Positions 12,680-64,000 of a stretch of DNA of 64,000 bases are shown in pieces (positions within the stretch are counted from its first letter, which is position 1; every line of letters begins with the position of its first letter). This stretch comes from Lycorma delicatula (taxonomy: Eukaryota; Arthropoda; Insecta; Hemiptera; Fulgoridae): NCBI RefSeq assembly GCF_047948215.1, contig NC_134461.1:90788245-90852244 (forward strand), in the 5' to 3' direction. The position numbers were made by a program, and so were the translations under genes. The notes beneath the pieces are model-generated. The model saw only the letters and a program-made list of their open reading frames with translations, made no database searches and was not told where the DNA came from.

Positions 12680-13285
12680 TGATTCACAAAGAATGTAACA
12701 AATCTTCAGAACACGTTCTATTGGAAAAAATAAAGCAGAAAGTAAATAATAAACGTAGGTACGATAACGCTTTGTTATTGAGTGTTGGCTGGCAAAAGAT
12801 TTCGCCCTAATTTTTTCGCCTTCGGTAAAATTAAGCCAGATTATAATTCTTGAAACCCTTATTAAAGGGTAAATTTACTGGTTCTTTATGAAATATACAT
12901 AATAATATAGAAATAAGTAAGTCCCAGAACTATATTTTTAGCAGTTTTTTATAAATCTGGGTAAGAGACATATATTTGGGTCAAAAAATACTATTTTATG
13001 TTTGGAGTAAAATAACTTTGTTAAACGGGTAAAAATATATAAAGGTTAAAAAAAATGTAGAGAATTTCATTTTGAGTAAAGTGATAAGAATGAAGTTTTG
13101 TTTAACTAAATAAATTCGTAAAGTAAATACATTCAAAGTTTATTAAAACAAAGAATATCAAAATGTGGAAGATTTTAACTATATATTAAACGAAACAAAT
13201 TTTTAATATTACAAAAAAAAATAAATATTTTATAAAAATAACAATCACAATTATGATGTATAATTATGTTGTAAATGTACAGACT
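12677..13285 (+). repeat. Dispersed repeat family C, copy 2
   Basis: The sequence starts GAGTGATTCACAAAGAAT and follows 6900-7885 without the retroposon present there. It retains GTTGGCTGGCAAAAGATTTC, GTCCCAGAACTATATTTTTAG and AATAACTTTGTTAAACGGGT. It is therefore the empty-site reference for the insertion at 7092. No open frame of note. Confidence 0.7.
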
Positions 13286-13292
13286 ATATACA

Positions 13293-13667
13293 TATACTAT
13301 TATCAATATTAATAAAAATAATTACTGCTTTTAATTTTTTATGTTACATAAGCGCTTTCGGTGTGATTACTACTTCATCAGATATTAAAAAGCATTTTTG
13401 TCAGAAAATTGAAACTAAATCGCAAGGTTGCTCATCTTCTAAGTCAGTTAATTAAATGGCATAACTTTAATTACCTTATTAAACTCCAAAACAACCATTT
13501 AATTAACTGATTTAGAAGTTAAAACAACCTTCTGTTCTGTTTCAATATTTTGACAAAAAGGTTATTTTATATTTGATGAAGTAATAATCACTACGAAAGC
13601 GCTCATGTAACATAAAAAACTAAAAGCAGTAATTGTAATTATTATTATTATTATTGATAATAGTATA
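13293..13667. mobile_element. Foldback (long inverted-repeat) element
   Basis: Two arms of roughly 180 bp are inverted copies of each other, meeting near 13478. Matching pairs include TATACTATTATCAA with TTGATAATAGTATA at the outer ends, GTTACAT(A/G)AGCGCTTTCG in the middle and CAGTTAATTAAATGG with CCATTTAATTAACTG near the centre. There is no coding sequence. The structure fits a MITE or foldback element; an intact RNA copy would form one long hairpin. No convincing target duplication was found. Confidence 0.8.
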
Positions 13668-13699
13668 TTATTATAGAGTCTGAGCACCGGATCTAAATT

Positions 13700-14625: not shown

Positions 14626-17186
14626 TATATATAATGTGTGTTTTTTTATAACATTTTGTTGTAGGATGTGCGATGTTTGATGAAGGATATTTAACTTCTT
14701 ATTGAATATTAGTAAATACAGCCCCCATTCATTTCTTTGTCAGTCAGAACATGGTAGTAGGTAATTTACCCTTCGCTATTTGTTAAATTAATCAATAATG
14801 GTTATATATATTGTTGAATTTTAATTTGAAGGTTACACTGATAAATGTATACATGTATAATGTACATACTAATTCATATAAATAAACAATAACATAAAAT
14901 TTAATGACAGGATTGAAGAATAACAACAAATAAAGGAAATAATAATCTAAAAGACATATATCAATGAAACTATGACGTAAATCTATAAATACGAGTAAGT
15001 ATAAAGGAAGCTGTGTTACGAATACAATACGATGAATATTCTTTGTTGATCGTTCACAATGACCCTACGGTTCTTTCTTCTTACCTTTTACAAACTTTTC
15101 ACACTTCAGAAATCTTCAGAAAGATCTGACCATTACTTTCTTTCTGTCTGCTGTTCTTTTGTACAATAGTTATTTAATGGATCAAAAGTTCTCAAGTTTT
15201 TCAGAATGAATTATTAGATTTAAATATAATTGAATACTAGTTTATTCTCTTAATAAAATATTAGGAATATAATAATAAATATATTAAAATAGATATGAGA
15301 ACACTGTCCATTTTTATTTATTTTCATAATATCAATTAAATCATTTTTTATTTGGGTAATCAGATTGAATAACCCGTTGAAATGTGGAATTTTGTAATTT
15401 CTTATAAACAAAATTATCACAATTTGTCTTAGAATTTAAAAATGGTGAACTGTTTTGAATTATTATATAAAATCAAAATGTAGTAATTATTTTTTAATAA
15501 AAATAAGTAAGAAAGTTTAGTAAATATATAACATTTTTAGCGATAAAAATGATCTCATAAAAATTTGTTATTAATTTCGTAATATTTGAAATAAAAATTT
15601 CAGGCAATGAAGAAAGTTAACTAAATTTCACTTTACTGATAAATATTTCATTTTTTTCAATCAGTTAATAGTACCTTATGCAACGAGCCTATAATGATAG
15701 CCATTAATGAAAGAATGTGAAGTAAGTGCTCGTGTCGTAAACTTCGCAAAAGTGCATTAATGGCCATTATAGAGAGTTGCATACCGTATTTTTTCTATGG
15801 CTAAGAAAATATTGGAATTATTGATTTAAATTACTGTTAGAGTACATGATTTACGGAATATTATTTTTTTTTAATTTTTCAAAAAATACATTTCTGTGCC
15901 AATAGATTATTAATCATAGGTTCTGCCTTTTCTTTAATATCGATCGTTGTTAAAGATATTTCTTTCTCAAAATCCACTTAATTAACAAAAATATAAACAA
16001 TGCAATATAAAAATATAGTTACCTATTGGTTTACTTTCATATTAACCTCTGCTTGCTAACTACTAAATCGGATTAAATCAAAATAAAAAAAAAATGCTAA
16101 TACCTCAAATAACACGCACTTCTGATTGGTCAGTAGTTGATAAGAGTAGGCGTTTAGTTTGTTGAACATTTGTATCACAATGAAAATCTGTTTCATAATG
16201 ACCCTCATTATGATATAGGTTTCGGCCGCGTAATCCAAACGTAATAAAATTTTTTATTACGAAAAATTAATTATAGTATAATGTAAAAAAAATTACTTAT
16301 TGAAAGAAAATAATTTCATAACGCTAAATTTCATTTATTAATATTTATTATTAAAAAAAAACTTATAACTTTGATTTCCAGAAATCTAATTTCTTTAAAT
16401 GAAAATTAGAAACCTACTGTGTGTTATTACAGTATTAAATGAGAAAAAATAATTATATTTTTTTTATTAATGAAAATTGTGTTTAGAAGAAGTATAATCA
16501 ATAAAACAAAGGAATAACAGAAAAAATAAGATAAAAGTGGTAGCAATTTATATATCCGGCCGCCTTATTGTAGAAGACCAGCAATCAGTTAATGGGGGAA
16601 GAAGTTTAGAAGACTGCTAATAGAACAGGTGAGTAGAGGTAAACAAGAAATTCTTAGAGAAGTCACTCTGTGTTCTAGTAAACCAAGTATCAAAAAACCA
16701 GGTGAGAGTAAATAAGCTTAGACACGCGTCTCGCGAATCAACCTACTGGACTCTTCTCTCAAAGGACTGATCAGATTTTTTTTTTCTCTAATGTAACAAA
16801 AATTTCACGTTTAATTCATTTCTCTAAACAAGTAGTAGTCGCTCCTTTGCTCTTTCAGATTCATTCATATAATAAAAAAGAATCTAGTTAAACAAACATT
16901 TTTATATGACTTAAAAAAATTCAAATTATGAAAAGTCTCACGAAAATAAACCACGCATAATGTTAAAATTCAACAAATATGTTAACGTTGAATACACAAT
17001 TTATAAATTGAATAGTTATTAAATTTATCAAACAATAATAAACTGATTTTCATTTTTAATAAGTTTATTATAATATGTAATAATTTTTTAGGGTTAATAT
17101 TCGATGTACAAAATACCTGACAAACACTTTCCATAGAGAGTAAATTCTGATTTGAAAAAGATGGAATCGCAAATATAAACAAATTA
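14626..17186. other. AT-rich spacer with one hairpin
   Basis: AT-rich DNA without recognisable gene. The only strong structure is the inverted repeat at 15677-15783, listed separately. A less AT-rich patch at about 16550-16770 has no motif I recognise. Confidence 0.5.
15677..15783. repeat. Imperfect hairpin, arms of about 33 bp
   Basis: TATGCAAC, CTATAATG and GCCATTAATG on the left arm pair with CATTAATGGC, ATTATAG and GTTGCATA on the right arm, around a loop of about 45 bases. Short indels interrupt the stem. It may be a small MITE or a structured transcript; nothing else in the window matches it. Confidence 0.65.
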
Positions 17187-17660
17187 CTTCCTTATACGAA
17201 GTAAAGGAAATGTGATCGCGAAAAATTTCGGTTTTCAAATTTCAATGGACATGTCCATTTTGACTAGTTTCAAAGTGCGATTTTACAAAAAGATTTTTTT
17301 TTGTTGAAAATATTGTTGTTTTTTAATTGTTAAAAAATGTGCCTAAGAAAAATATGACTTTAATTAGGCGAAATATGGAGATATTGAGAGTGGGTGACCT
17401 TGCTCTACAGCCTCACCCCTTTATCTTGAAAGTTGAAAATTTAATGGTGTCAATATCCCATATATAGAAGTAATCTGACCAAATTTGGTCAAAATCGGTC
17501 CAGTAGTTCTGGAGATATAAGGTTATTTATAGGCCAACACCGAACACATACACGTACGTAGGAACATTAACATCCGGAAAATTTCCATCCGGTTTTTTGG
17601 GTTTCATAGGTGTCAAAACTTCAAGATTCGGTGAAAACCGCATATTCCCAAATTGGATCG
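17187..17660 (+). repeat. Dispersed repeat: E head plus F body, copy 1
   Basis: The first about 100 bp (E head) carries GAAGTAAAGGAAATGTGATC, GCGAAAAATTTCGGTTTTCA and CATTTTGACTAGTTTC, also found at 24206, 28000-28080 (minus) and 43321. From about 17330 it is a different module (F), shared with 60370-60660: AATTAGGCGAAAT, TGACCTTGCT, GAAGTAATCTGACCAA, TCAAAATCGGTC, AGGCCAACACC and ATCCGGAAAATTT. No coding frame. The family is not identified; modules E and F occur independently elsewhere. Confidence 0.7.
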
Positions 17661-20136: not shown

Positions 20137-20173
20137 AAGCACTTTTTGTAAGTCAAGATTTTCCATTTAAATA

Positions 20174-21505
20174 CTGGGTGATTCAAAGAAACGGGACATT
20201 TTGAAAGTTGTGTTGGTAGCCGTGGGCGATTGGTACCACTTGATAAGTGGCGCCAGCCTCTCTAACCTAACCTGCCATTTAGTTGTCATGGATCCTTGGA
20301 GTGGTGCGCAACGTGCATTTGCTATCAAAGCGTTTTACAAAAACAGTGACAGTGTGGAGGGGGCGCGTAGAGAATTTCGCCGTCATTTTAATCTGGGACG
20401 GCACGACCGTATTCCATTAGCACATGCAATTAAAACATGGATATCTAATTTTGAGGAAACTGGTTCGGCAATGAAAAAGAAACCTCCAGGCCGTGAGTGA
20501 ACCGTCCGTACACCACAGAATGTTCAAGCTTTACAAGATGCTGTCACACGAAGTCCACAGCGGTCAATCCGTCGTCTCTCAGTGTCTTTACAATTCCATA
20601 GTTCAAGTGTTCGAAGAATGTTAGTGAAGGACTTGCAATTCCATCCATACAAGTTGCAGATCGTCCAGGAACTGAAACCGAACGATGCAGTTGTGCGAGC
20701 ACAATTCTGTAATGTAATGCTTCAGAAGATAAATGATAACGAAGAGTTTGTTCACGAACTGTGGATGTCAGACGAAGCGTATTTCCACCTCAGTGGATTT
20801 GTTAACAAGCAAAATTTCAGATACTGGGCACAAGAAAATCCTACGCAGCTACACCAGCGTCCGTTGCACAGCCAGAAAGTGACCGTGTGGTGTGCTATGT
20901 CATCTTACGGTGTTATAGGCCCTTATTTTTTTGAGGATGACAACGGTCTTGCGATTACAGTGACGTCGGCTCGTTACGTAGCCGTGCTTGAAACCTTTGT
21001 TGTGGAACAACAAAAGAGATTTCCACCGATTCTTAACACAGCCTGGTTTCAACAAGACGGAGCAAGTCACATACTGCACGAATATCGATGGCAGCTGTAC
21101 GCCGATTGTTTGGACAACGTGTCATTTCACGAAATGGTGACCTCCCAGATCGCCTGATCTCTCAGCTTGCGATTACTTTTTGTGGGGTCACCTTAAAAGC
21201 AAAGTGTTCTACAGTAGACCAGCTGCAACGGAAGAACTGAGGGCAAAGATCTGAGAAGCAATTGCGGAAATTCCAGTTGAGATGTTACGTCAAACCATGA
21301 TCAATTTAACGAAGAGACTTCGTGAGTGTTTACGTAGAAGAGGAGGTCACCTGCAAGATGTCATCTTTAAAAAATAAACTAAAATGTATGTATCCAAAAA
21401 TGGCAACATTTGTACAATTACATGAAATAAAATTCATTTTCTAGAAAACATTTTTCATTAACGTTATTTAATTTTTAAAATTTCCCGTTTCTTTGAATCA
21501 TTCTG
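20174..21505 (+). mobile_element. Tc1/mariner-superfamily transposon, complete but dead
   Basis: A 1332-bp element with terminal inverted repeats of about 30-35 bp. The left end is CTGGGTGATTCAAAGAAACG and the right end, reverse-complemented, is CAGAATGATTCAAAGAAACG. It is flanked by TA on both sides (20172-20173 and 21506-21507). The inverted foldback arm at 24070-24085 preserves the uninterrupted site with a single TA, which confirms both borders. It contains one transposase pseudogene on the plus strand. Confidence 0.93.
20288..21377 (+). pseudogene. DUF4817-type Tc1/mariner-related transposase, broken
   Basis: Cut-and-paste transposase relic filling the element. The likely start is the ATG at 20288 (MDPWSGAQRAFAIKAFYKN), a DUF4817-type helix-turn-helix N-terminus. 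The DDE-type core shows its first acidic site in MSDEAYFHLSG (about 20767-20799), its second in WFQQDGASH (about 21046-21072), and the third region as RSPDLSACDYFLWGHLKSKV in another frame (about 21145-21205). The last residues VIFKK precede TAA at 21375. Breaks: an in-frame TGA at 20498, a frameshift between about 21060 and 21080, a second near 21145, and TGA near 21252. Both nonsense codons sit where CGA (arginine) is expected, which fits CpG decay. Related relics lie at 32994-33255 and 61705-62000. Confidence 0.9.
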
Positions 21506-21879
21506 TATTTACTTTTAATTTTTAAATGTTTGACATTTAATATCTTGTTTTTTAACATTTAAATATTAAATTAAAGCTTGTTGGAAATCATTTGATGTAA
21601 AAGAATAGATTATAATCTTTTGTAAAGTGGTTATAATCTATTCTTCTACGTCATCAAATGATGATTTTCAACACGCTTTTATTAAATATTTAAATGTTAA
21701 AAAACCACAAAATATTTTTTTTTTTTTTTTGAGGTTTTTAGGGGCATCGACTACTTTGGTCATTAGCCCCATCCCACTTCAAAAAAATAAAATAAAAAAA
21801 AGGGTTCAATATTTCACATTTTCATGTATCAAAAAATGATGAAAATTTTACATTTTCTTATAACTTCTGCTCCAACAAA

Positions 21880-22318
21880 TTACTTTCTAGGCCTACGAAC
21901 GGCCAATCTGCGAACGGCCTCAACTTCCGATGACAGTGTGTCTGAGGCCTCGGACATGGCATCGTCTTCTCTTTCGGATGCCAATGACGTTCGCCGGCTT
22001 ACATCAGGTGATGAAAGCTTCATTGGTGCTGTTGACATCGTTGCTATTGAATCTAGACTAGCAAGCGATGCACTTTCCGCGGCTGATGAGCTGGATTCTA
22101 TCTCTACAGCAGTGCTGGGTACAGCTGAAATAGATGGTCTCGCTGCAGCTGTTCTTTGAGCTTTTGGAGGCCCCATTGTTACAATTTGTATATCGTCTAC
22201 CTCTGGTGCTTTCTCAATAACGACTTGCACCTCCACTTCAGTAGACTCGGATTTTCTAGTGGCTATTTCCTTAGTTTTGTAACTACACGAAGGAGTGATC
22301 TTTTCCTCTTTTCTAGAT
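21880..22318 (-). pseudogene. Frameshifted C-terminal extension of LINE ORF1
   Basis: Starting a few bases before the ORF1 stop, another minus-strand frame runs without interruption: RSRKEEKITPSCSYKTKEIA and on through a serine/alanine-rich tail to RRLAVRRPRK and TAA at 21880. The absence of stops for about 145 codons, the direct junction with ORF1 and the position just before the 3' untranslated region suggest one original ORF1 of about 525 codons split by a single frameshift near 22320. The tail is low-complexity (many S, A, E) and has no domain I recognise. Confidence 0.7.
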
Positions 22319-23452
22319 CGCAGGTTTAACTAGTTTTTTATGTTGCGCTGGTACGTTTCTTTTATCAACGATGTCAATGCGGGATTGAGCCTTCTCATGC
22401 TCAGACGGTTCTGTGCGATGAGTCGACTCTATCTTAGCATCAATGATTTTTTCTATCATTGTTGCAAGGCTTGGTGCCATTGTATTAAGCAACTGCTCCA
22501 CGTTAATTTTGGTTGAAGAAGAGGCAGCAGCTTCTTCAGCATAAGTGGTCGATTGTCGAGGTGTTCGTTGACTAACAATTTTCTTCGCTTCAGGATAACT
22601 AACCTTCTGAAGCGTTTTAACTTCCTGAATGGCCGTTTCAGATTTATAAACTGGGCAATTCCTGGATCGGCAGTTATGGTGCCCTTTACAATTAATACAG
22701 ATTGGAGGGTCTTTACATGGTTCACCCTCATGTATCTTCATTCCACATATGCAGATTTCCTGCGCTTCACATCTAGCTGCAGTGTGCCCGAAACGTTGAC
22801 ACTTGAAACATCGCATAGGCTGCGGAATAAACGCACGTACATCAAGCCGATGAATGCCAGCACGCACCTTTTCAGGGAGGGTAGGCCTGTTAAATGTCAG
22901 TACATGAGAGGCCGAAGGAAGAATTTCGCCATTTCTTCTCACTGTTAGGCTGCGACACTGAATCACTCCTTGACTCGACATTTCCTGTACTATTTCCTCT
23001 TCTGTACAGTTTAGAAGATCACGGCAAACAACAACTCCTCTGGATGTATTAAGGGTACTATGCGGTTGCACTGATACCGCAAATTCACCGATCTTCTTCA
23101 ATGCCTGGACTTTTTGACTTTGACTGTCGTTAATAGTTTCAACGTGTAATCCGTTAAAGGTTTTGCGAATTTCCTTAACAGGACCACCAGCACAATTAGT
23201 TATCTCTCTTGCGATCAAGAATGAACTAACTTTTTGAAAGTTGCCATTCTCCTTTGTAATAACTAAAAATCTCAGTTTGGGAGGAATGTTTCCAAACAAA
23301 GACTTTCTCAATTCCTTACTGATTTTGTCAGCATCTCTTTTAATTTTATCTGACTCCTTGCTCTTTTTCCTCTTCGCTTGTGGCGAATCGGAGGATTCAA
23401 AACGAGGGTGTTTACGTGCACCCTCTGCCACGTTTGATTGTTCAATATTCAT
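22313..23452 (-). CDS. LINE ORF1 (gag-like zinc-knuckle protein), 379 codons
   Basis: ORF1 protein of a Jockey/R1/I-group LINE. It binds element RNA and acts as a nucleic-acid chaperone in the ribonucleoprotein. The start ATG (MNIEQSNVAEGARKH) follows the leader. There is a basic stretch KRKKSKESDK at residues 28-37, a central domain at about 58-200, and three cysteine-rich knuckles. The first is C215-x2-C218-x4-H223-x4-C228; the second involves C234, C236, H241 and C246; the third involves C252, C255, H258/H259 and C266, followed by PVYKSE, a usual end of such gag modules. The frame stops at 22313 with KKLVKPAI, but homologous-looking sequence continues in another frame (next entry), so this is probably a truncated ORF1 caused by one frameshift. 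It is the longest open frame in the window and the only one that looks protein-constrained. Confidence 0.9.
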   Translation of the reverse strand: MNIEQSNVAEGARKHPRFESSDSPQAKRKKSKESDKIKRDADKISKELRKSLFGNIPPKLRFLVITKENGNFQKVSSFLIAREITNCAGGPVKEIRKTFNGLHVETINDSQSQKVQALKKIGEFAVSVQPHSTLNTSRGVVVCRDLLNCTEEEIVQEMSSQGVIQCRSLTVRRNGEILPSASHVLTFNRPTLPEKVRAGIHRLDVRAFIPQPMRCFKCQRFGHTAARCEAQEICICGMKIHEGEPCKDPPICINCKGHHNCRSRNCPVYKSETAIQEVKTLQKVSYPEAKKIVSQRTPRQSTTYAEEAAASSSTKINVEQLLNTMAPSLATMIEKIIDAKIESTHRTEPSEHEKAQSRIDIVDKRNVPAQHKKLVKPAI

Positions 23453-23488
23453 GAACGGTGGATCCCTTCTGTAGCAAGGCTAGCCGCC

Positions 23489-23541
23489 GGGGTGTCCCCC
23501 AGTGGGGGACACCCCACTGTGTAGTGGGGGTGTCCCCCACT
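23489..23541. promoter_or_regulatory. Tandem GC-rich palindromes in the LINE leader
   Basis: GGGGTGTCCCCC-AGT-GGGGGACACCCC (23489-23515) is a perfect 12-bp-arm hairpin. Overlapping it, AGTGGGGGACACCCCACT and then AGTGGGGG-TGT-CCCCCACT (23523-23541) form a second. They sit about 40-90 bases upstream of the ORF1 start on the minus strand. Possible roles are translation control or a packaging structure; neither is shown by the sequence. Confidence 0.8.
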
Positions 23542-24205
23542 CCAGGGCTACTAACCTTGGAGGTCCGATCCGGTACTCCGGTGGAACCCGGCATATGTCC
23601 CGTCAGAGAGCGGATGCGCAGTCTCTGCACTGACTCCAGGCTCCTACTCACCGAAGCTTTCAGAGCTCCCATGCACCGACATACATGGGCACCATTGCTA
23701 CATGCTTGCCATCGCAGGGGGCATGTGGACAAAGGAAGGGTCTCCGTTACACCTGCAATAACATTGACCCTGGCCGCCACATCGCCAGCTCTAAGAGTGG
23801 TATGAGTCCATTTCCAAAATCGTTTATTATTCCATATACTGCAGGTAGCCAAAAATCCAGTTCGTTTAAAGACCTGAAGTTGGAAACAGGTCAAAAGAAA
23901 AGCATATCCGAGGAATTTACTCGGAGCTCCGTTAGCCACCTATATGTGTTGTACATAAGTACAGCTGTTACCGCTCTGGACGTGAAACGTAGATGTTGTG
24001 TTCCGGACGTGGGGATTACCTACCTCAGGGCAACAAAATATTAAATTTCAAACATTTAAAAATTAAAAGTAAATATATAAATGGAAAATCTTGACTTACA
24101 AATACTGCTTTAATTTTATAATATCCCGCGATCCTATTTCACAGGGTACACCAAAAATAAAAACAACCAAATGAAATTTTTTTACAATTTTTTTTATGTT
24201 CTTGT

Positions 24206-24275
24206 ACAAAGTAAAGGAAGTATTGTGATCGCGAAAAATTTCGGTTTTCAAATTTCAACGGAAATATCCGAAAAA
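24206..24275 (+). repeat. E-head repeat fragment
   Basis: About 70 bp with CAAAGTAAAGGAAGTATTGT and GATCGCGAAAAATTTCGGTT, matching the head module at 17187 and 43321, but followed by unrelated sequence. It is either a truncated copy or another chimaera. Confidence 0.7.
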
Positions 24276-27039: not shown

Positions 27040-28085
27040 AAAAAATCAAATCTGATGTGGACACCATATGAATTCCTGGTACGCATATTAAATAACATAT
27101 TTTTTATTACTTTTTTTTTGTTATTGAATTATTATTTACTGTATTTTTTTTTATAATCAGAAAAATAATTTTTTAAATAATAATTATTAATAAATCAATA
27201 CATTTAAATTAAACGAAAAAAAGTTAAAAAAAAAGAAAACGAAAAGAAGTCGCATTCGAACCGTTGTGCCTTCTCCTTGTAAGATCAAAATTTCATTAAT
27301 TACAATTTTATTGGGCTATAACTCTGGAACCAATGAAAATAAGTACCACTTAAGATATATTGTTGAAAAGCTCTCAATGAGGGCATCACTGCAGTTAAAC
27401 CAAAACCAATTTTTTGGATTTTGGGCTCTTTTGGACACTTTTGGTTCAGTAGATTGCAATCAAAAGGGGAGGTGCACAACTAGATGTTAAACAATTCTAA
27501 ATCCAAAATTTAAACATTCTACGGCTAATCGTTTTTGAGTTATGCGAGATACATATGTACGTACATCCCAACTCCTATTAAAATTAGATCAATTACAAAA
27601 ATTGCACCCTCACACCAAAATATAGTAATAATTTTGAAACGTTGTAGAATGTAGAAGGCATTACATCCTAACCCCTTAGGGGAAGCCACCCTTTCCCTTG
27701 CCAACCCCCCCCCCGTTCCTTGCCCTGTTGGGTTTTAACGGGAGTCGTCTATCGCCCTCTGACTTTTTACATCTCATAGTAATAAGCCTGGCCTCGTTGG
27801 AATGCCACCGATGCGAATGCCTCGGTAGACATTTGCATCGGTGATTAAATAACTCAGCTTATTACCTTCGCTGTAGGCCTCGTCTGGACATCTTGAATGT
27901 CCTACATTGACTCCCTCTGAACTAGCTAAACGAGCCTGCGGAAGCGCGTACCCACATATGTACGTACAGACATCACGCCGAAACTAGACAAAATGGATTC
28001 AGGGATGGTCAAAATGGTTATTTCTGTTGAAATTTGAAAACCGAAAATTTTCGCGATTACAGTACTTCCTAGTACCGTACAAGGA
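27040..28085 (-). repeat. Dispersed repeat family G with E head, copy 1 (interrupted)
   Basis: Reverse-oriented copy of the unit at 43321-44008. The head at 28000-28080 matches module E. The body contains the AACGATTAGCCGTAGAATGT block and AGTTGTGCACCTCCCC, and near its end a tRNA-like B box (GGTTCGAATGC, plus positions 27252-27262) followed by a T-rich stretch on the minus strand. The copy is split by a 388-bp insertion at 27566-27953. Confidence 0.75.
27566..27953. mobile_element. GC-rich retroposon with 15-bp target duplication
   Basis: ACATATGTACGTACA flanks it exactly (27551-27565 and 27954-27968). Family G copy 2 (around 43418-43436) has the same place uninterrupted. The insert is richer in GC, contains a C-run near 27703-27714 and two near-copies of GATGCGAATGCC / ATTTGCATCGGTG in inverse orientation (about 27808-27846). 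No poly(A) tail or coding frame is visible, so orientation is unassigned. A perfect 15-bp duplication is typical of LINE-driven insertion. Confidence 0.8.
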
Positions 28086-29904
28086 AGTAAAAACATTCAT
28101 TTTAAAATTCACCAATAGACATTCTATGCGTTTGTTCGGTGTTCACTACGAAAATTTTATCAATATAAAAACTACAATTACATGCGAAAAAAAATTATTT
28201 TATGAATTATTGTACTATCATACGGCGGTATATGTTTAGATTGTTTTGTAAACTAGCCTTTTTCTGATCGATAATTAGTATCTTCATTCAGGATCAGTAT
28301 CACCAGATCCACGCAAAGAAATTTAGTGTATAAACCTTCCGTTTACCATTTGGTTATGCCGACTAATACAATACATAACACCATCCTGCAAATTATATTA
28401 TTATGAAAATGGTTTAAGACAGTAATTTCAGTATTTTTTTAATCTTTTCCAAGCATGCACCGAAAATATTTAGTCCTTAAATTAGGTAGGAATAAATTTA
28501 TGTGTCTGGATTAATAGGTAATATTGATTGGAAAAGTATTATCTAATGGATTATTAGATAATTAATATTAAATATTATTAATATTAATTATTAGATTAAT
28601 TAATACCTGACACAGAAATTGAAGCATAATAAGCATTCCTAAATAAGTTACCAAAATATTAAAACTTCGATTTAAATTTTGCATAAATGTCCCCTATAAA
28701 AAGCGAAGAAGTATGATAATCTGTTTAAAACTAAATCAGATATTAGGAATCACTTTCTGGAACTGTACTTAACAATCCAAAAGTTGTCGGCTAAGAAGCC
28801 AATAACAGATTTGAATGCTTCATTTAGAAAGCACAGCGCACTTCACCATCCCGTGGAGGTATACTAATGGAGATCTAGTAATTTGTGCGTTTTTTATTTC
28901 TTCTACCTGTACAAAAATCTATTGGCTCAAAACAACTTTTTATTTGTCAAGAAGTAAATTTTCTTCCTTGTTTAGGAAGCTGATGATTTTTATCATTGGA
29001 ATGTCACTTTTTTTTATACGGATTCCTAAAGGTTTTTATTCACAAGTAAGTTAGGATTAGGTTAATTGAAAACTTATACATCAATTTCATTCGTGAGTTG
29101 CCAACTTTTGGAATCTGTAAAGTTGGTGTAAGGTTTTGTAAAAAACACAACAATTTTATGAAAAAAAATTACTGATTTTAAAAAAATATTTGAAATAAAA
29201 ATTTCTGTGCAAGAGAATAAATTTATTATAATTGAAATTATAATAATTGTTTTTAAAGACTGTCCAGTCCAAATGTTAACAGGTTTATCTGAATGATCGT
29301 TTTTTAAATAAGAGGTAAATATAGACAGTTACTTCAGATTGTCTGAATATAGGTTTCAAAAAAGAAATTGGAAATGGCAAAATGCATAAAAATGAGGGAA
29401 AAATTTTAGAGGATTTTAAAAAAAAAATTTTTCTGGTGTTTTAAATCCAGAATCTATTTAATGAAGCTGATATAAATAAAATCTATGAATGTTATTTGGG
29501 TTATTTTTCTAATTTCTTGATTAGTCCAACTTTTTGATAGAATTAATATTTTTTTTTTGTTAATTAAAAAGGAGAAAATAAATCAAGTTTATAAGAAAAA
29601 TAAATGACCTTAATTGCACATAAATGAGGGATGTATGATAATTTACATTTGATTATTTAGTCGCCAAATATTAATAAAATAGTAAAGTTAATAAAAATTA
29701 TTATATTTTAAAATCTCGCAACATTTAATGTTGCTATTTTATCGTTGCGATATTAATTAATCATTTCATAACTATCAAAAACAATATAATCATTAAACAT
29801 TAATTGAATAGAGTTTAGAAGATACTGATAAAATATATTCACTTATACAATTTAATAATACTCTTCAATTTAAAAAAAAACAATTCTTCAAATCTTTATC
29901 GCTG
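28086..29904. other. AT-rich spacer, no gene seen
   Basis: AT-rich DNA. A self-complementary AT block (about 28545-28610, built on ATTATTAGAT/ATCTAATAAT and TAATATTA units) is the only structure. The frames 28027-28239 and 28815-29054 have no recognisable motif. Confidence 0.5.
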
Positions 29905-42752: not shown

Positions 42753-43320
42753 AATAATTGAGTAAAATTAAAAGTTAAAGAGAAGAATACATTGAACCAA
42801 TCAAGTGTGAGAAAAACAAACATTAGTACGTTTACATAAAAATGAACGCTATTATTTTTCGTTTTTAAAATAGTTACATAAAATTTAGTTAAAATTAAAA
42901 ATAATCAAAGATTATACTACTCAAATTGTATCTTTGATAATTAGTTTAAAAATAAATAAAGAACATCATAATAACGGGAAAGAACATCTTACTTGACTGC
43001 CCAGTCACTTCGCTGTAGACGTATTTAAATTCATTTCATTACTCACATTCCTTTTTTAAAAATTTAAAAAATCCTAAGAAATGACATTTTTCTCATTACT
43101 TTTTATCTTAAAAAGTTCTTATTAAAATTGAAAAATATGTTAAATTAACTAAGGTTTATTTAAAGATATTAAATTAATACGTTCGTTTTGATAAACTAAA
43201 TAAGGTAATGCGTATATTAATTAAAATAACTGTAATTAGGATGTATTATTTGAGAAAATAAGAATGCAGTCAATTTATATAGTAAAAAAAATAATTTAAT
43301 AAAACTGGTTAATTTTTAGT
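42753..43320. other. AT-rich spacer, no gene seen
   Basis: No frame, motif or paralogue. Confidence 0.55.
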
Positions 43321-44008
43321 TCCTTGTACGAAGTAAAGGAAGTATTGCGATCGCGAAAAATTTCAGTTTTCAGATTTCAACGGAACTATACATTTTGACT
43401 AGTTTCGGCGTGACGTCTGTACGTTCGTACATATCTCGCATAACTCAAAAATAATTAGCCGTAGAATGTTGAAATTTTGAATTTAGGAGAATTAACCATC
43501 TAGTTGTGCACCTCCCCTTTTAATTACAATTGACTGGACCAAAAGTGTCCAAAAACCAAAAGGTTTGGATTTTAGACTTTTTATTAACTTTAGTAAAAAG
43601 CCCTCATTGCGATTTTTTCAATGATATATCATAAGTGGTACTTATTTTCATCGGTTCCAGAGATATAGCCAAATAAAATTTTAATTAATGAAATATTTGG
43701 ATCTTACAAGGCGAAGGCACATTGGTTCGAATCCGACTTCATTTCCGTTTTTTTTTTTAATTTAATTATATCGATTTATTAATAATTATTAACGTGTGAT
43801 TATAAAAAACGTTTTACAATAAATAATAATTCATAATGACAAAAAAAAAATGAAAAAATAGATAAAAGATTTCTTTATTAAAGAATTGGATGATCGTATC
43901 TCACATTAAACTGAAATAGATTTAAATGAAGTGCAGCAAAAAGTGTGTATATGTAATTTAGTAGGCGTACAAGGAAATAATGCGGTGTCCAGATCAAATT
44001 TTTTACTG
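43321..44008 (+). repeat. Dispersed repeat family G with E head, copy 2 (uninterrupted)
   Basis: The head is TTCCTTGTACGAAGTAAAGG and GATCGCGAAAAATTTCAG. The body is AATTAGCCGTAGAATGTTGA and AGTTGTGCACCTCCCCTTTT. A perfect pol III B box consensus GGTTCGAATCC lies at 43724-43734, with an 11-T run at 43748-43758. The right part ends near GGTGTCCAGATCAAATTTTTT, also matched in copy 1 (about 27040-27062). The ACG-TCTGTACG...CGTACATATCTCGC region (43410-43440) is the empty site for the insertion in copy 1. Confidence 0.78.
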
Positions 44009-44834: not shown

Positions 44835-45790
44835 AAGGGATAACTACCCGCGAGTTCAACTTAATGGCGTTTATCCCGCTTGCAATACCTATGAACGTCG
44901 TCTGATGTGGAGTATTCATGTCAGAAACAAAAGGACACAGTTTACGATGGTGCTGTTACGGTTGTGTTGAGGAGGGGTAACTGCCCGCGAGTTCAACTTA
45001 ATGATGTTTTCATCCCACATACTGACAGGATGTGATACCTAGGATCGCCATCTGACATGGAAGATTCAAATCAGGTAAAAAAGAACGTAGCTTAATATTA
45101 AGTTCAGGGAGATGTAGTGGTTATTAGGCAGGGGGTCGCAACTATCATTATCTAACAAGCAGTTTCTGTACTCAGCAGTCCTGAAACCGATCTGAGCCTA
45201 CGGAATCCAACTACGGGGTAGGACAAGTGAGAGTAATATAGAAGTCGTACAGCGATTTCAGAACAAAATATTGACTAATATAACAGAAGCGCCGTGGTTT
45301 GCGAAAAACACTGAAATACACGATTATCTGGAATTGGCAACAGTTAGGAGATTCGCCTATTGGGTACAAAATACAAAATGAGACTGATAAACGTGTGAAC
45401 TGGCTCGCGGTTTATCCCCTGGATATCAGTGAGGGCGCTAGGCGTCTAAAGTGACTGTGTATAATAGATCTGTAAGTTTTTCGAGATTTGAGGTGAATCA
45501 GCTTACCATAGGCTGTTGTGCATCCTCAAAATTCTTCATTTCGTTTTGTCACTTACTTTTTTTTGGTTTTTTGATTTATTTAACTTTTCTTTGTTTGATT
45601 AGTTATTCTTTGTGTGATTGATAGACTATTTTTTTGTAGTTTTCTTTGTTTTTTATGTTCTGATCAATGTTCCTTGGACATATCTTTGTATGTATGTATT
45701 TATTATATATTTATGTAGACTGTGTATGATATGTATACATAAATATACCTCAAAGAAACTGTAATTCAGTTCTTTAATTTTTTTTAATTC
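44835..45790 (+). mobile_element. Internally deleted Jockey-like LINE, copy 1
   Basis: Order: two tandem leader units of about 140-150 bp (44836 and 44975 onward, each with CCCGCGAGTTCAACTTAATG), a linker (GGGAGATGTAGTGGTTATTA to ATCATTATCTAACAAGC), the last part of ORF2, and an AT-rich 3' region to about 45790. The reverse-oriented element at 63075-64000 has the same order and the same leader-to-ORF2 junction. There is no room for ORF1, endonuclease or reverse transcriptase. The target duplication was not determined. Confidence 0.8.
45169..45480 (+). pseudogene. Jockey-like ORF2 C-terminal relic, copy 1
   Basis: From 45169 the frame reads YSAVLKPI, stop, AYGIQL, then after a one-base shift TSESNIEVVQRFQNKILTNI, EAPWFAKNTEIHDYLELATV and RRFAYWVQNTK before a stop near 45380. 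This is the well-known ORF2 region following the reverse-transcriptase domain in Jockey-type elements (LKPIW.YGIQLWG.....N....QR.Q.K.LR). The catalytic domain itself is absent. Stops and a shift rule out a product. The same part is preserved at 63350-63723 on the minus strand. Confidence 0.85.
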
Positions 45791-46544
45791 AAATTTACTT
45801 ATGGTTTCGGTAAATTGAAATTGATTGTAAAATTAAACACTGCAGCAAAAAAAAGAAAAGTTAAATGATGATAAATTATAAATCTTTGAATTTATTTTTT
45901 CAGGATTTAAAGAAAAAAAAAACACGAAATTTTACGTCTCCAACTTATCATACTTAGATGGGTTAATAGGGAAACGATAGCAATCATCTAAACATCCAAA
46001 TAAAAAAAATATTCAAAAAAAATTTTACAAAGTAAAAAAAAAATGTTCGAATAACTGTACCTAATTGCACCTTCTAGTATTCGAAACTTATGCTCAATTA
46101 TGGATCAATATCTTCAATAAATACTTTGTTAATGTATTCAATTATATTTCTATATATAATTTAAAAAAAATTTTTATTATATATACATTTTATTACAGAT
46201 TTAGATATAACTCATTTATTTTATTATTATATTCGTAGCTTCATTTGTTTCACATTATTGAGATTAATCAGTGTATTTATGTACAATATTTACATTTGAA
46301 GTATTATATTTTAGTATTTATTTAGATTCATATTTTTAAGTTACATTTTAAATAGTATTGATTTAACCTTTTAGATATCTTTTATTGAACTTGAAAGAGA
46401 ATGATTTTACTGCAACAATAGTATTATCAAGAAGAAATATATATTATAAAATAGCTGTTGAACTAAACTTGATTAACATATATCTACATGCCTGACATAA
46501 GTAAGAAGAAAAGAGTTACATAATTTGTTTATAAATAATAAGGA
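45791..46544. other. AT-rich spacer, no gene seen
   Basis: Structureless AT-rich DNA. Confidence 0.55.
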
Positions 46545-62860: not shown

Positions 62861-63047
62861 AATTGAATAAAATCATTATTTAGAAGAGAATAATAAATAT
62901 TTTACTTTATTTAAAAAAGAAATACTTTGTAAAGTGTTTAATTTGGTGAAAAATGAATAACTGTAGAAATTTATAAAACGTCTTACACTATCCACACTTT
63001 TATAACGAATTCTTTCTTTTTTTTGCCACAGTGTTTAATTTACAAAC
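62861..63047 (+). repeat. Direct repeat J, copy 2
   Basis: See copy 1 at 61461. Differences are scattered substitutions plus a few small indels. The right end abuts the 3' end of the reverse-oriented Jockey-like element. Confidence 0.88.
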
Positions 63048-63349
63048 GGTTTCAATTTACCTAAATCATAAGCAATTTTGTATACAAAAAACAGTCATGC
63101 AGAGGGGATTTCCATTAAAATCCCTCAAAGAACTGTATATGTATACATATCTTATACAGTATACATAAATGTATAATAAACATAAATAAGTACATACAAA
63201 GATACGTCCAAAGCATACTAATCACTTTCAGAACTATAAAAAACAGAAAAAACAAAAAAAATTCTTATCAATCACACAGAATAATTAAACAAAAAAAAAA
63301 CTGTGAAAGAAATATAACAATCAACAAAATAATCGGCGAAAGGCAATAA

Positions 63350-63723
63350 AGAATTTTGGCGATCCTCATCACCCTAGGATAAACTGATTTACTTCATATC
63401 TCGGAGAACTTACAGATGTAATATATGCAGTTGCTTTAGATGCCTTATCTCCTCGCTGACATCCAGGAGGTTAACCGTGAGCCAGTTGACATGTTTATTT
63501 GGTCTCATTTTTCATCTTGTACCGAATCATAGAAATCCTCTCGAACGGTTGTCAATTTCAGATAATTGTGTTTTTCTGTGTTTTTTTTCAAACACAGCGG
63601 TTCTGTTATATTTCTCAATAGTTTATTCTCGAGTCGTTGGACGATTTCAATGTTACTCTCACTTGTCGTAACCCAAAGTTGGATTCCGTAGGTCCAAATC
63701 GGTTTCCGGACTGCTAAATACAA
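63350..63723 (-). pseudogene. Jockey-like ORF2 C-terminal relic, copy 2
   Basis: The open part (63505-63723) reads YLAVRKPIWTYGIQLW, TSESNIEIVQRLENKLLRNI, EPLCLKKNTEKHNYLKLTTV and REDFYDSVQDEK. It is the ORF2 segment following the reverse-transcriptase domain in Jockey-type LINEs, homologous to 45169-45480. The continuing tail to about 63350 needs a frame change (QLTVNLLDVSEEI-like region, about 63440-63490). The catalytic core is not present. The upstream methionine in this frame lies in the linker and is not a natural start. Confidence 0.85.
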
Positions 63724-63809
63724 AAATTACTTGTTAAATAATGATAGTTACGATTTCCTTCCTAACAACCGATATATCTCCCTGATATAAAAACTGATAT
63801 ATCTCCCTG

Positions 63810-63847
63810 TTGGGGAAAAGGACGCAGCTGCGTCCTTTTTTCCCCAA
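63810..63847. repeat. 38-bp near-perfect palindrome
   Basis: TTGGGGAAAAGGACGCAG (63810-63827) is followed directly by its inverse CTGCGTCCTTTTTTCCCCAA (two extra T). It lies between leader and ORF2 tail of the Jockey-like derivative. In copy 1 the matching place (about 45075-45110) keeps only the AAAAAAGAACGTAGC half. GATATATCTCCCTG occurs twice beside it (about 63771-63809). Confidence 0.9.
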
Positions 63848-64000
63848 CTTGAATCCTGCATGTCAGATGGCGATCCTAGGTATCCTACGCTAGCACGGGG
63901 GATGGAAACATTAAGTGAACTCACCGCTCCTTATCGCAAAAGCAACACTACCATCGTAAACTGTGTCATTATTGTGATAATTAAACATAACTTGTATATA

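What the first reader, a model, noticed from the sequence alone, without database searches (positions are those of the whole stretch)
20137..24110. A foldback element whose two arms each record the other's insertion
The left arm is split by a Tc1-like transposon with TA duplication; the right arm is split by a LINE with a 10-bp duplication. Because the arms are inverted copies, each supplies the uninterrupted site for the other: the TA site near 24078 and the AATATCTTG-type site near 21545. All four borders and both duplications can therefore be fixed from one locus. The arms have diverged slightly, so both insertions can be placed after the foldback formed. Intervening 1.3-kb and 2.3-kb insertions also destabilise the original hairpin.
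Basis: seen in the sequence. Interest (0 to 1): 0.85.

Follow-up and report, generated by a model that had tools for sequence, protein, structure and literature searches.

The report
Foldback split by two mobile elements
A one-off 314-base DNA hairpin in a lanternfly genome was broken by two mobile elements, one in each arm, and one of the two proves to belong to a family of retrotransposons that lacks its copying enzyme yet seems to have kept its other protein under natural selection.

Summary
A 314-nt inverted repeat (arms 135/145 identical) carries a 1,332-bp Tc1/mariner element in its left arm (TA duplicated) and a 2,316-bp LINE in its right arm (ACAAAATATT duplicated); each arm shows the other's empty site. 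Divergences agree with both insertions being younger than the hairpin.

The interpretation needs two changes. First, the searches answered found no second copy of this hairpin in the 2.2-Gb genome, while the same search found a family for another foldback of this window. It looks like a local inverted duplication, not a foldback transposon.

Second, the "LINE" has no ORF2 and belongs to a multicopy ORF1-only family: 23 of 40 scored places, own included, run essentially end to end. In 18 aligned copies, changes on internal branches spare the protein (53 N:72 S; tips 360:142). A relative with endonuclease, RT and RNase H lies directly upstream of one copy and shares its 5' region and 3' end. The family resembles HAL1 and HeT-A in makeup. 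That this relative supplies the enzymes is inferred. The host is probably Lycorma delicatula.

The parts
20137..20173 (+). left arm, outer part (ends with the TA target copy 20172-20173)
   Evidence: (I4)
20174..21505 (+). rosa-type DD41D Tc1/mariner-superfamily DNA transposon, decayed copy
   Evidence: TIRs and TA duplication; Pfam PF16087 (DUF4817); 40 scored genome places at 94-100%, own included; 41 residues between second and third D in the majority of 12 copies
20201..20500 (+). transposase N-terminal frame (DUF4817 helix-turn-helix), ends at an in-frame stop
20582..21157 (+). transposase middle frame (first two catalytic D, assigned by eye against relatives), same frame after the stop; third D in another frame
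   Evidence: relatives
21506..21615 (+). left arm, inner part (starts with the second TA copy)
   Evidence: (I1, I2, I5)
21616..21630 (.). loop of the inverted repeat
   Evidence: I5: 15 nt between arms
21631..21716 (-). right arm, inner part; 21707-21716 is the first copy of the LINE target-site duplication
21717..24032 (-). ORF1-only LINE, full length, 3' poly(A) at 21717
22313..23452 (-). ORF1 of the LINE, 379 aa frame with CCHC-type motifs (motifs read by eye; no Pfam match)
21880..22236 (-). C-terminal part of ORF1 in a shifted frame; ends ..RRPRK like relatives' ..GKPRK
21717..21879 (-). LINE 3' UTR; the terminal stretch of about 52 nt that is shared with the two-ORF relative lies at its poly(A) end
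24033..24110 (-). right arm, outer part (starts with the second target-site copy 24033-24042)
   Evidence: (I2, I4)

Best explanation
The locus is a near-perfect inverted repeat of 314 nt, single-copy as far as the searches reach, that most likely arose by a local inverted duplication and was later hit twice. A rosa-type DD41D transposon pasted itself into a TA of the left arm. An ORF1-only LINE inserted into the right arm by target-primed reverse transcription. The ORF1-only LINE belongs to a non-autonomous family. Its master copies keep a functional ORF1 protein, whose likely job is to bind its own RNA, while endonuclease and reverse transcriptase come in trans from a related LINE with RNase H that recognises the shared 3' end. 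Shown: borders, duplications, arm alignment, no second foldback in the searches answered, the ORF1-only layout in 18 copies, the selection signature in their tree, a two-ORF relative with shared ends. Inferred: how the inverted repeat arose, trans mobilisation, the role of ORF1, insertion chemistry.
For: Arms and empty sites; chance control. Single copy; positive control with another foldback of the window, 128 first-look candidates, 40 scored, matches at 67-86% identity. Tc family: 2,439 first-look candidates, 40 scored at 94-100%, own included; own copy 1.7% from the majority of 12 aligned copies, TA on both sides in 6 of the 11 others, 41 residues between second and third D. ORF1-only family: 4,858 first-look candidates, 40 scored, 23 of 40 places (own included) essentially end to end at 87-100%; I fetched 17 of the 22 others, and in all 17 ORF1 is followed by the same 3' UTR (expected, since they were picked as end-to-end matches); 13 of 17 have an exact flanking repeat of 8-15 nt, 7 of these 13 being TAA repeats. 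Of the 17 scored places that are not end to end, I looked 1.0-1.1 kb around the break of 4 that lack the 3' end: 0 of 4 has a piece like the relative's ORF2. Selection: variants in one copy 296 N:96 S, in two copies 31:19, in three or more copies 40:60; three or more against one, Fisher 5e-11, without CpG-type sites 3.6e-8; stop-making variants 16, 1 and 0 in one, two and three or more copies; on a tree internal 53:72, tips 360:142, Fisher 1.9e-9. Relative: L067, ending directly at the 5' end of copy L053, has endonuclease, RT and RNase H, ORF1 67% aa over 354 aa, 74% DNA over 1,306 nt of 5' region and ORF1, 85% over the last 52 nt.
Against: The DNA search skips very common words, and only one of two planned arm patterns was answered (the inner-arm pattern did not complete), so foldback relatives could be missed. 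The relative L067 is not close (ORF1 67% aa), so a nearer two-ORF partner may exist; its copy number was not obtained. Only 40 of 4,858 candidates were scored, the ones most like this copy; a copy with an ORF2 between ORF1 and 3' UTR would score lower and could go unseen. If ORF1-only elements arose several times from two-ORF parents with the same junction, part of the selection signature could come from the parents. The tips' ratio (0.73 of the neutral expectation) is not fully neutral. One 1-nt insertion in ORF1 is shared by three copies; it lies in an A run and the three are scattered on the tree, so I take it as recurrent slippage.
Confidence: 0.78

Rival explanations
1. The inverted repeat is the last detectable member of an old or very low-copy foldback or MITE family that moved by a transposase, and the two elements hit it afterwards.
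For: Hairpin shape, short loop, AT-rich arms; another foldback in the same window does belong to a dispersed family.
Against: No second copy at the sensitivity; no convincing target duplication at the outer ends (read by eye); arms differ by only 7%, so a family active at that time should still be detectable.
Confidence: 0.2
2. The ORF1-only copies are simply dead internal deletions of a two-ORF LINE, amplified as passengers; ORF1 matters only in the parent.
For: Single-copy changes are nearly neutral and many copies carry stops and frameshifts; the family shares 5' and 3' ends with a two-ORF LINE; only the copies most like this one were seen.
Against: Changes shared by subfamilies are strongly depleted in protein-changing substitutions; no stop-making variant is shared by three or more copies; the two indels shared by one clade are 3 nt each, while 22 of 31 singleton indels are not multiples of three; 0 of 4 copies that lack the 3' end continue into an ORF2.
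Confidence: 0.2
3. The empty site in one arm is due to excision or gene conversion rather than to insertion after duplication.
For: Cut-and-paste elements can leave; arms of an inverted repeat can convert each other (general knowledge).
Against: LINEs do not excise (general knowledge); each insert has a clean target duplication while the opposite arm has a single target; ages agree with late insertion.
Confidence: 0.03

Closest known systems
HAL1 (half-L1) elements of mammals
   Same: Non-autonomous LINE derivative that encodes only ORF1 protein (PMC5753468, passages read)
   Different: HAL1 derives from L1; the two-ORF relative here carries RNase H, and its ORF1 has zinc-knuckle-like motifs by eye. 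Whether HAL1 ORF1 is under selection was not read (paper not held).
HeT-A of Drosophila
   Same: Insect non-LTR element with an ORF1 and no RT, dependent on another element (PMC4700185, passages read); three copies here stand head to tail behind a two-ORF relative
   Different: HeT-A builds telomeres; these copies are spread inside chromosomes and 7 of 17 sit at TAA repeats
SIDEs such as Persaeus and its partner Zenon (Lepidoptera)
   Same: Internally deleted LINE derivative that depends on and shares sequence with a partner LINE (PMC6740152, passages read)
   Different: SIDEs are called short; the passages read do not describe a kept ORF1, whereas here ORF1 is kept
rosa (DD41D) Tc1/mariner elements, e.g. 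Apismar4 of aphids
   Same: About 1.3 kb, TIR of about 30 bp of the form GGGTGnnTCAAA in Apismar4.1, DD41D (PMC5490172, passages read)
   Different: Not placed in a tree with named rosa elements here

Membership tests
Foldback transposon or MITE | long inverted repeat able to fold back | tested here: met
   arms 93% identical, 314 nt once inserts are left out
Foldback transposon or MITE | more than one copy in the genome | tested here: not met
   control. Limited by skipped common words and one unanswered pattern
Foldback transposon or MITE | target-site duplication at the outer ends | tested here: inconclusive
   none evident by eye; outer border uncertain (a 52-nt match at 85% reaches 20122)
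rosa DD41D Tc1/mariner | TA duplication | tested here: met
   TA on both sides in 6 of 11 other copies as cut out
rosa DD41D Tc1/mariner | 41 residues between second and third D | tested here: met
   majority of 12 copies
rosa DD41D Tc1/mariner | groups with named rosa transposases in a tree | not tested
   no named rosa protein was fetched
LINE (non-LTR retrotransposon) | poly(A) tail and target-site duplication | tested here: met
   13 of 17 other copies with a flanking exact repeat
LINE (non-LTR retrotransposon) | own reverse transcriptase | tested here: not met
   no ORF2 between ORF1 and poly(A) in the 18 copies (picked as end-to-end matches): a non-autonomous derivative
HAL1 | ORF1 only | tested here: met
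HAL1 | derived from L1 | tested here: not met
   two-ORF relative has RNase H; that L1 lacks RNase H is recalled
HeT-A | forms telomeric arrays | tested here: not met
   the 40 places lie on many contigs, mostly far from the ends of those whose length is known
I group of LINEs (for the two-ORF relative) | endonuclease, RT and RNase H in ORF2 | tested here: met
   (PF14529, PF00078, PF00075); the clade name is recalled, no RT tree was made

The most novel reading that the evidence does not exclude
The spotted lanternfly hosts an RT-less retrotransposon lineage, spread inside chromosomes, whose only protein is kept by selection because it must coat its own RNA to borrow the endonuclease and RT of a related RNase H LINE; both share the 3' end and possibly a preference for TAA repeats, which would make this a chromosome-internal counterpart of HeT-A from another LINE clade, and the nested locus dates one of its insertions.
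Probability: 0.5. Interest if true: 0.65.

Novelty: new member of a known kind. Interest (0 to 1): 0.5.

Why it matters
As a locus, the split hairpin is a tidy self-calibrated record: two insertions, four borders and both target sites from one sequence. The larger point is the LINE. A family that lacks the enzyme but keeps ORF1 under selection would make it testable what ORF1 protein does for its own RNA and why RT works in trans here. HAL1 and HeT-A are the known parallels; this would be an independent case in Hemiptera, with a candidate partner at hand.

Tried and rejected
Foldback as a dispersed element: rejected as far as reach. The ten off-locus 24-mer hits were compared with the whole foldback: only matches of about 13-63 nt, no second arm. 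A tie between this foldback and the ones at 13280-13682 or in L009: only one 22-nt match, taken as chance. Using a dispersed repeat to the right (24191-24267) as an empty site of the whole foldback: it does not cross the border. dN/dS between ORF1-only and two-ORF relative: synonymous sites saturated (pS 0.80, pN 0.19), so no ratio is given. Two-ORF copies among the 17 scored places that are not end to end: 4 of the 17 looked at, none found. Literature: the searches (listings) showed no title or abstract on this family or on an ORF1-only LINE in this insect; that is a statement about those searches of an open-access library only.

Order of the two insertions: cannot be told (1.7% of 1,332 sites against 2.1% of about 2,300). 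An earlier count said about 26 end-to-end copies; the recount is 23 with the own copy.
Full report
What is there. Window 20137-24110 holds four arm pieces that pair as inverted repeats. With the two inserts left out, a 314-nt hairpin remains, with 135 of 145 aligned positions identical and three 3-nt gap groups. A slightly mis-joined version scored 189 against a maximum of 43 in 1,000 shuffles and 38 in 1,843 other stretches of the window. The left arm is split by a 1,332-bp element flanked by TA, the right arm by a 2,316-bp element flanked by ACAAAATATT. Each arm supplies the other's unoccupied site.

Where it is. The window lies in G000:C7:90788245-90852244 of a 2.2-Gb assembly of 14 contigs. 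Contig C1 is 404,011,691 bases long, the same length as the contig that bears two Lycorma delicatula proteins among the ORF1 relatives (P0001 and P0016). So the host is very probably the spotted lanternfly; this is an inference from one contig length.

The hairpin itself. A genome search with the uninterrupted sequence returned six matches, all at this locus. A 24-mer of the outer arm with up to 3 mismatches returned 12 places, two being the arms, one with 2 mismatches and nine with 3, against 18 for the reversed control; none of the ten others has a second arm near by. As a control, the 403-bp foldback at 13280-13682 of the same window was searched in the same way and gave 128 first-look candidates, 40 scored, with matches at 67-86% identity. 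The inner-arm pattern did not complete. I conclude that this hairpin is not a dispersed element at this sensitivity, and favour local inverted duplication; the mechanism is inferred.

The DNA transposon. It has TIRs, TA flanks and a decayed transposase with the DUF4817 domain. The genome holds many relatives: 2,439 first-look candidates, 40 scored at 94-100% including itself. Of 19 fetched others, the 11 that lay in the plus orientation in their locus were aligned with it, and the 8 in the minus orientation were dropped by the script. In that set of 12 the own copy is 1.7% from the majority, and the second and third D are 41 residues apart; 6 of the 11 others show TA on both sides as cut. Size, TIR form and DD41D match the rosa group as described for aphids (PMC5490172, passages).

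The LINE without ORF2. On the minus strand the insert has a 5' region, ORF1 (broken into two frames here), a 3' UTR of about 163 nt and poly(A); there is no room for ORF2. A genome search gave 4,858 first-look candidates, of which 40 were scored; 23 of the 40 places, own included, cover the element essentially end to end, and 16 of the 22 others stop at the same 5' border within one base. I fetched 17 of these 22. In all 17, ORF1 is followed at once by the same 3' UTR, which is expected because they were picked as end-to-end matches; 13 of 17 have an exact flanking repeat of 8-15 nt, seven of them TAA repeats and hence ambiguous, and 4 have none by this test. The other 17 of the 40 scored places are truncated or rearranged. 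For 4 of them that lack the 3' end I read 1.0-1.1 kb around the break: two carry foreign sequence within ORF1, one a short tail-like A run in the 3' UTR, one most of the 3' UTR; none has a piece like the relative's ORF2. Copies with an ORF2 of the same subfamilies could still exist among the unscored candidates.

Selection on ORF1. The majority frame runs 548 codons. Substitutions seen in one copy are near the neutral expectation (296 N:96 S, i.e. 3.1; 3.46 expected from the sites), those in two copies are 31:19, and those shared by three or more are 40:60 (Fisher, three or more against one, 5e-11; 3.6e-8 without CpG-type sites); stop-making variants are 16, 1 and 0 in one, two and three or more copies. 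Parsimony on a FastTree tree gives 53:72 inside and 360:142 on the tips, stops counted as N (Fisher 1.9e-9). So the copies that left descendants seem to have kept the protein, although the copies analysed lack ORF2. Of three indels shared by three copies, two are 3 nt and mark one clade, one is a 1-nt change in an A run, scattered on the tree. Limits: 18 copies, chosen by likeness to this one; the same sites were used for the tree and for the count; several small internal nodes are weakly supported.

The two-ORF relative. Three of the 40 scored copies have, just upstream, a piece of 51-54 nt matching the element's own 3' end at 85%. These three neighbours were fetched (L067-L069). L067 is a LINE with ORF1, endonuclease (PF14529), RT (PF00078) and RNase H (PF00075), with its frames broken in places. 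It shares 74% over 1,306 nt of 5' region and ORF1, 67% of amino acids over 354 residues, and 85% over the last 52 nt with the ORF1-only family. In the 6 kb fetched, L068 and L069 match only 3' parts of it. A shared 3' end is the feature by which partner LINEs are usually recognised (general knowledge); that the relative mobilises the ORF1-only family is inferred. How many copies it has could not be learned.

Target. Seven of 17 ORF1-only copies have TAATAATAA within 25 nt of the 5' border, against 0.31% of positions in 144 kb of this genome (binomial 5e-14). The copy in the hairpin is not at such a repeat. Part of this could come from insertion into tails of earlier copies.

Timing. Arms 6.9% apart (about 3.5% each), Tc 1.7%, LINE tip 2.1%. 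The hairpin thus appears older than both insertions, with wide error (10 differences only), and their order is open.

Verdict.

Noticed in passing
window 13280-13682: A 403-bp foldback (arms 78%) that belongs to an old dispersed family: 128 first-look candidates, 40 scored, matches at 67-86%.
   Followed up: partly
L009:4076-4428 and L009:7222-7331: Two more foldbacks (353 and 110 bp) within 10 kb left of the window, with no match at E 0.01 to each other or to the others.
   Followed up: partly
window 17184-17264, 24191-24267, 28008-28093, 43313-43399: Short dispersed repeat of about 80 bp (about 81-90% alike) with an invariant ATCGCGAAAA core; one copy lies 80 bp right of the foldback.
   Followed up: partly
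L067 / L053 junction, and L068, L069: ORF1-only LINE copies stand head to tail directly behind the 3' end of the two-ORF relative in three of 40 scored places.
   Followed up: partly
L067 versus ORF1-only majority: The last 97 nt of the 5' region are 92% alike while ORF1 DNA is 70% alike over 928 nt, as if the 5' region were exchanged or constrained.
   Followed up: no
L069, reverse complement, frames at 618 and 1852: A different LINE with long stop-free frames (422 and 910 codons, by eye zinc-knuckle and endonuclease/RT-like) next to a tail of the two-ORF relative.
   Followed up: no
L072 (C8:33932654-33933700): An ORF1-only copy that breaks off about 30-40 nt after ORF1 in a short A run, as if polyadenylated early.
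   Followed up: no
window 44927-45858 and 63013-63975: A pair of nearly 1-kb inverted repeats at 73% identity, probably an old repeat family.
   Followed up: no
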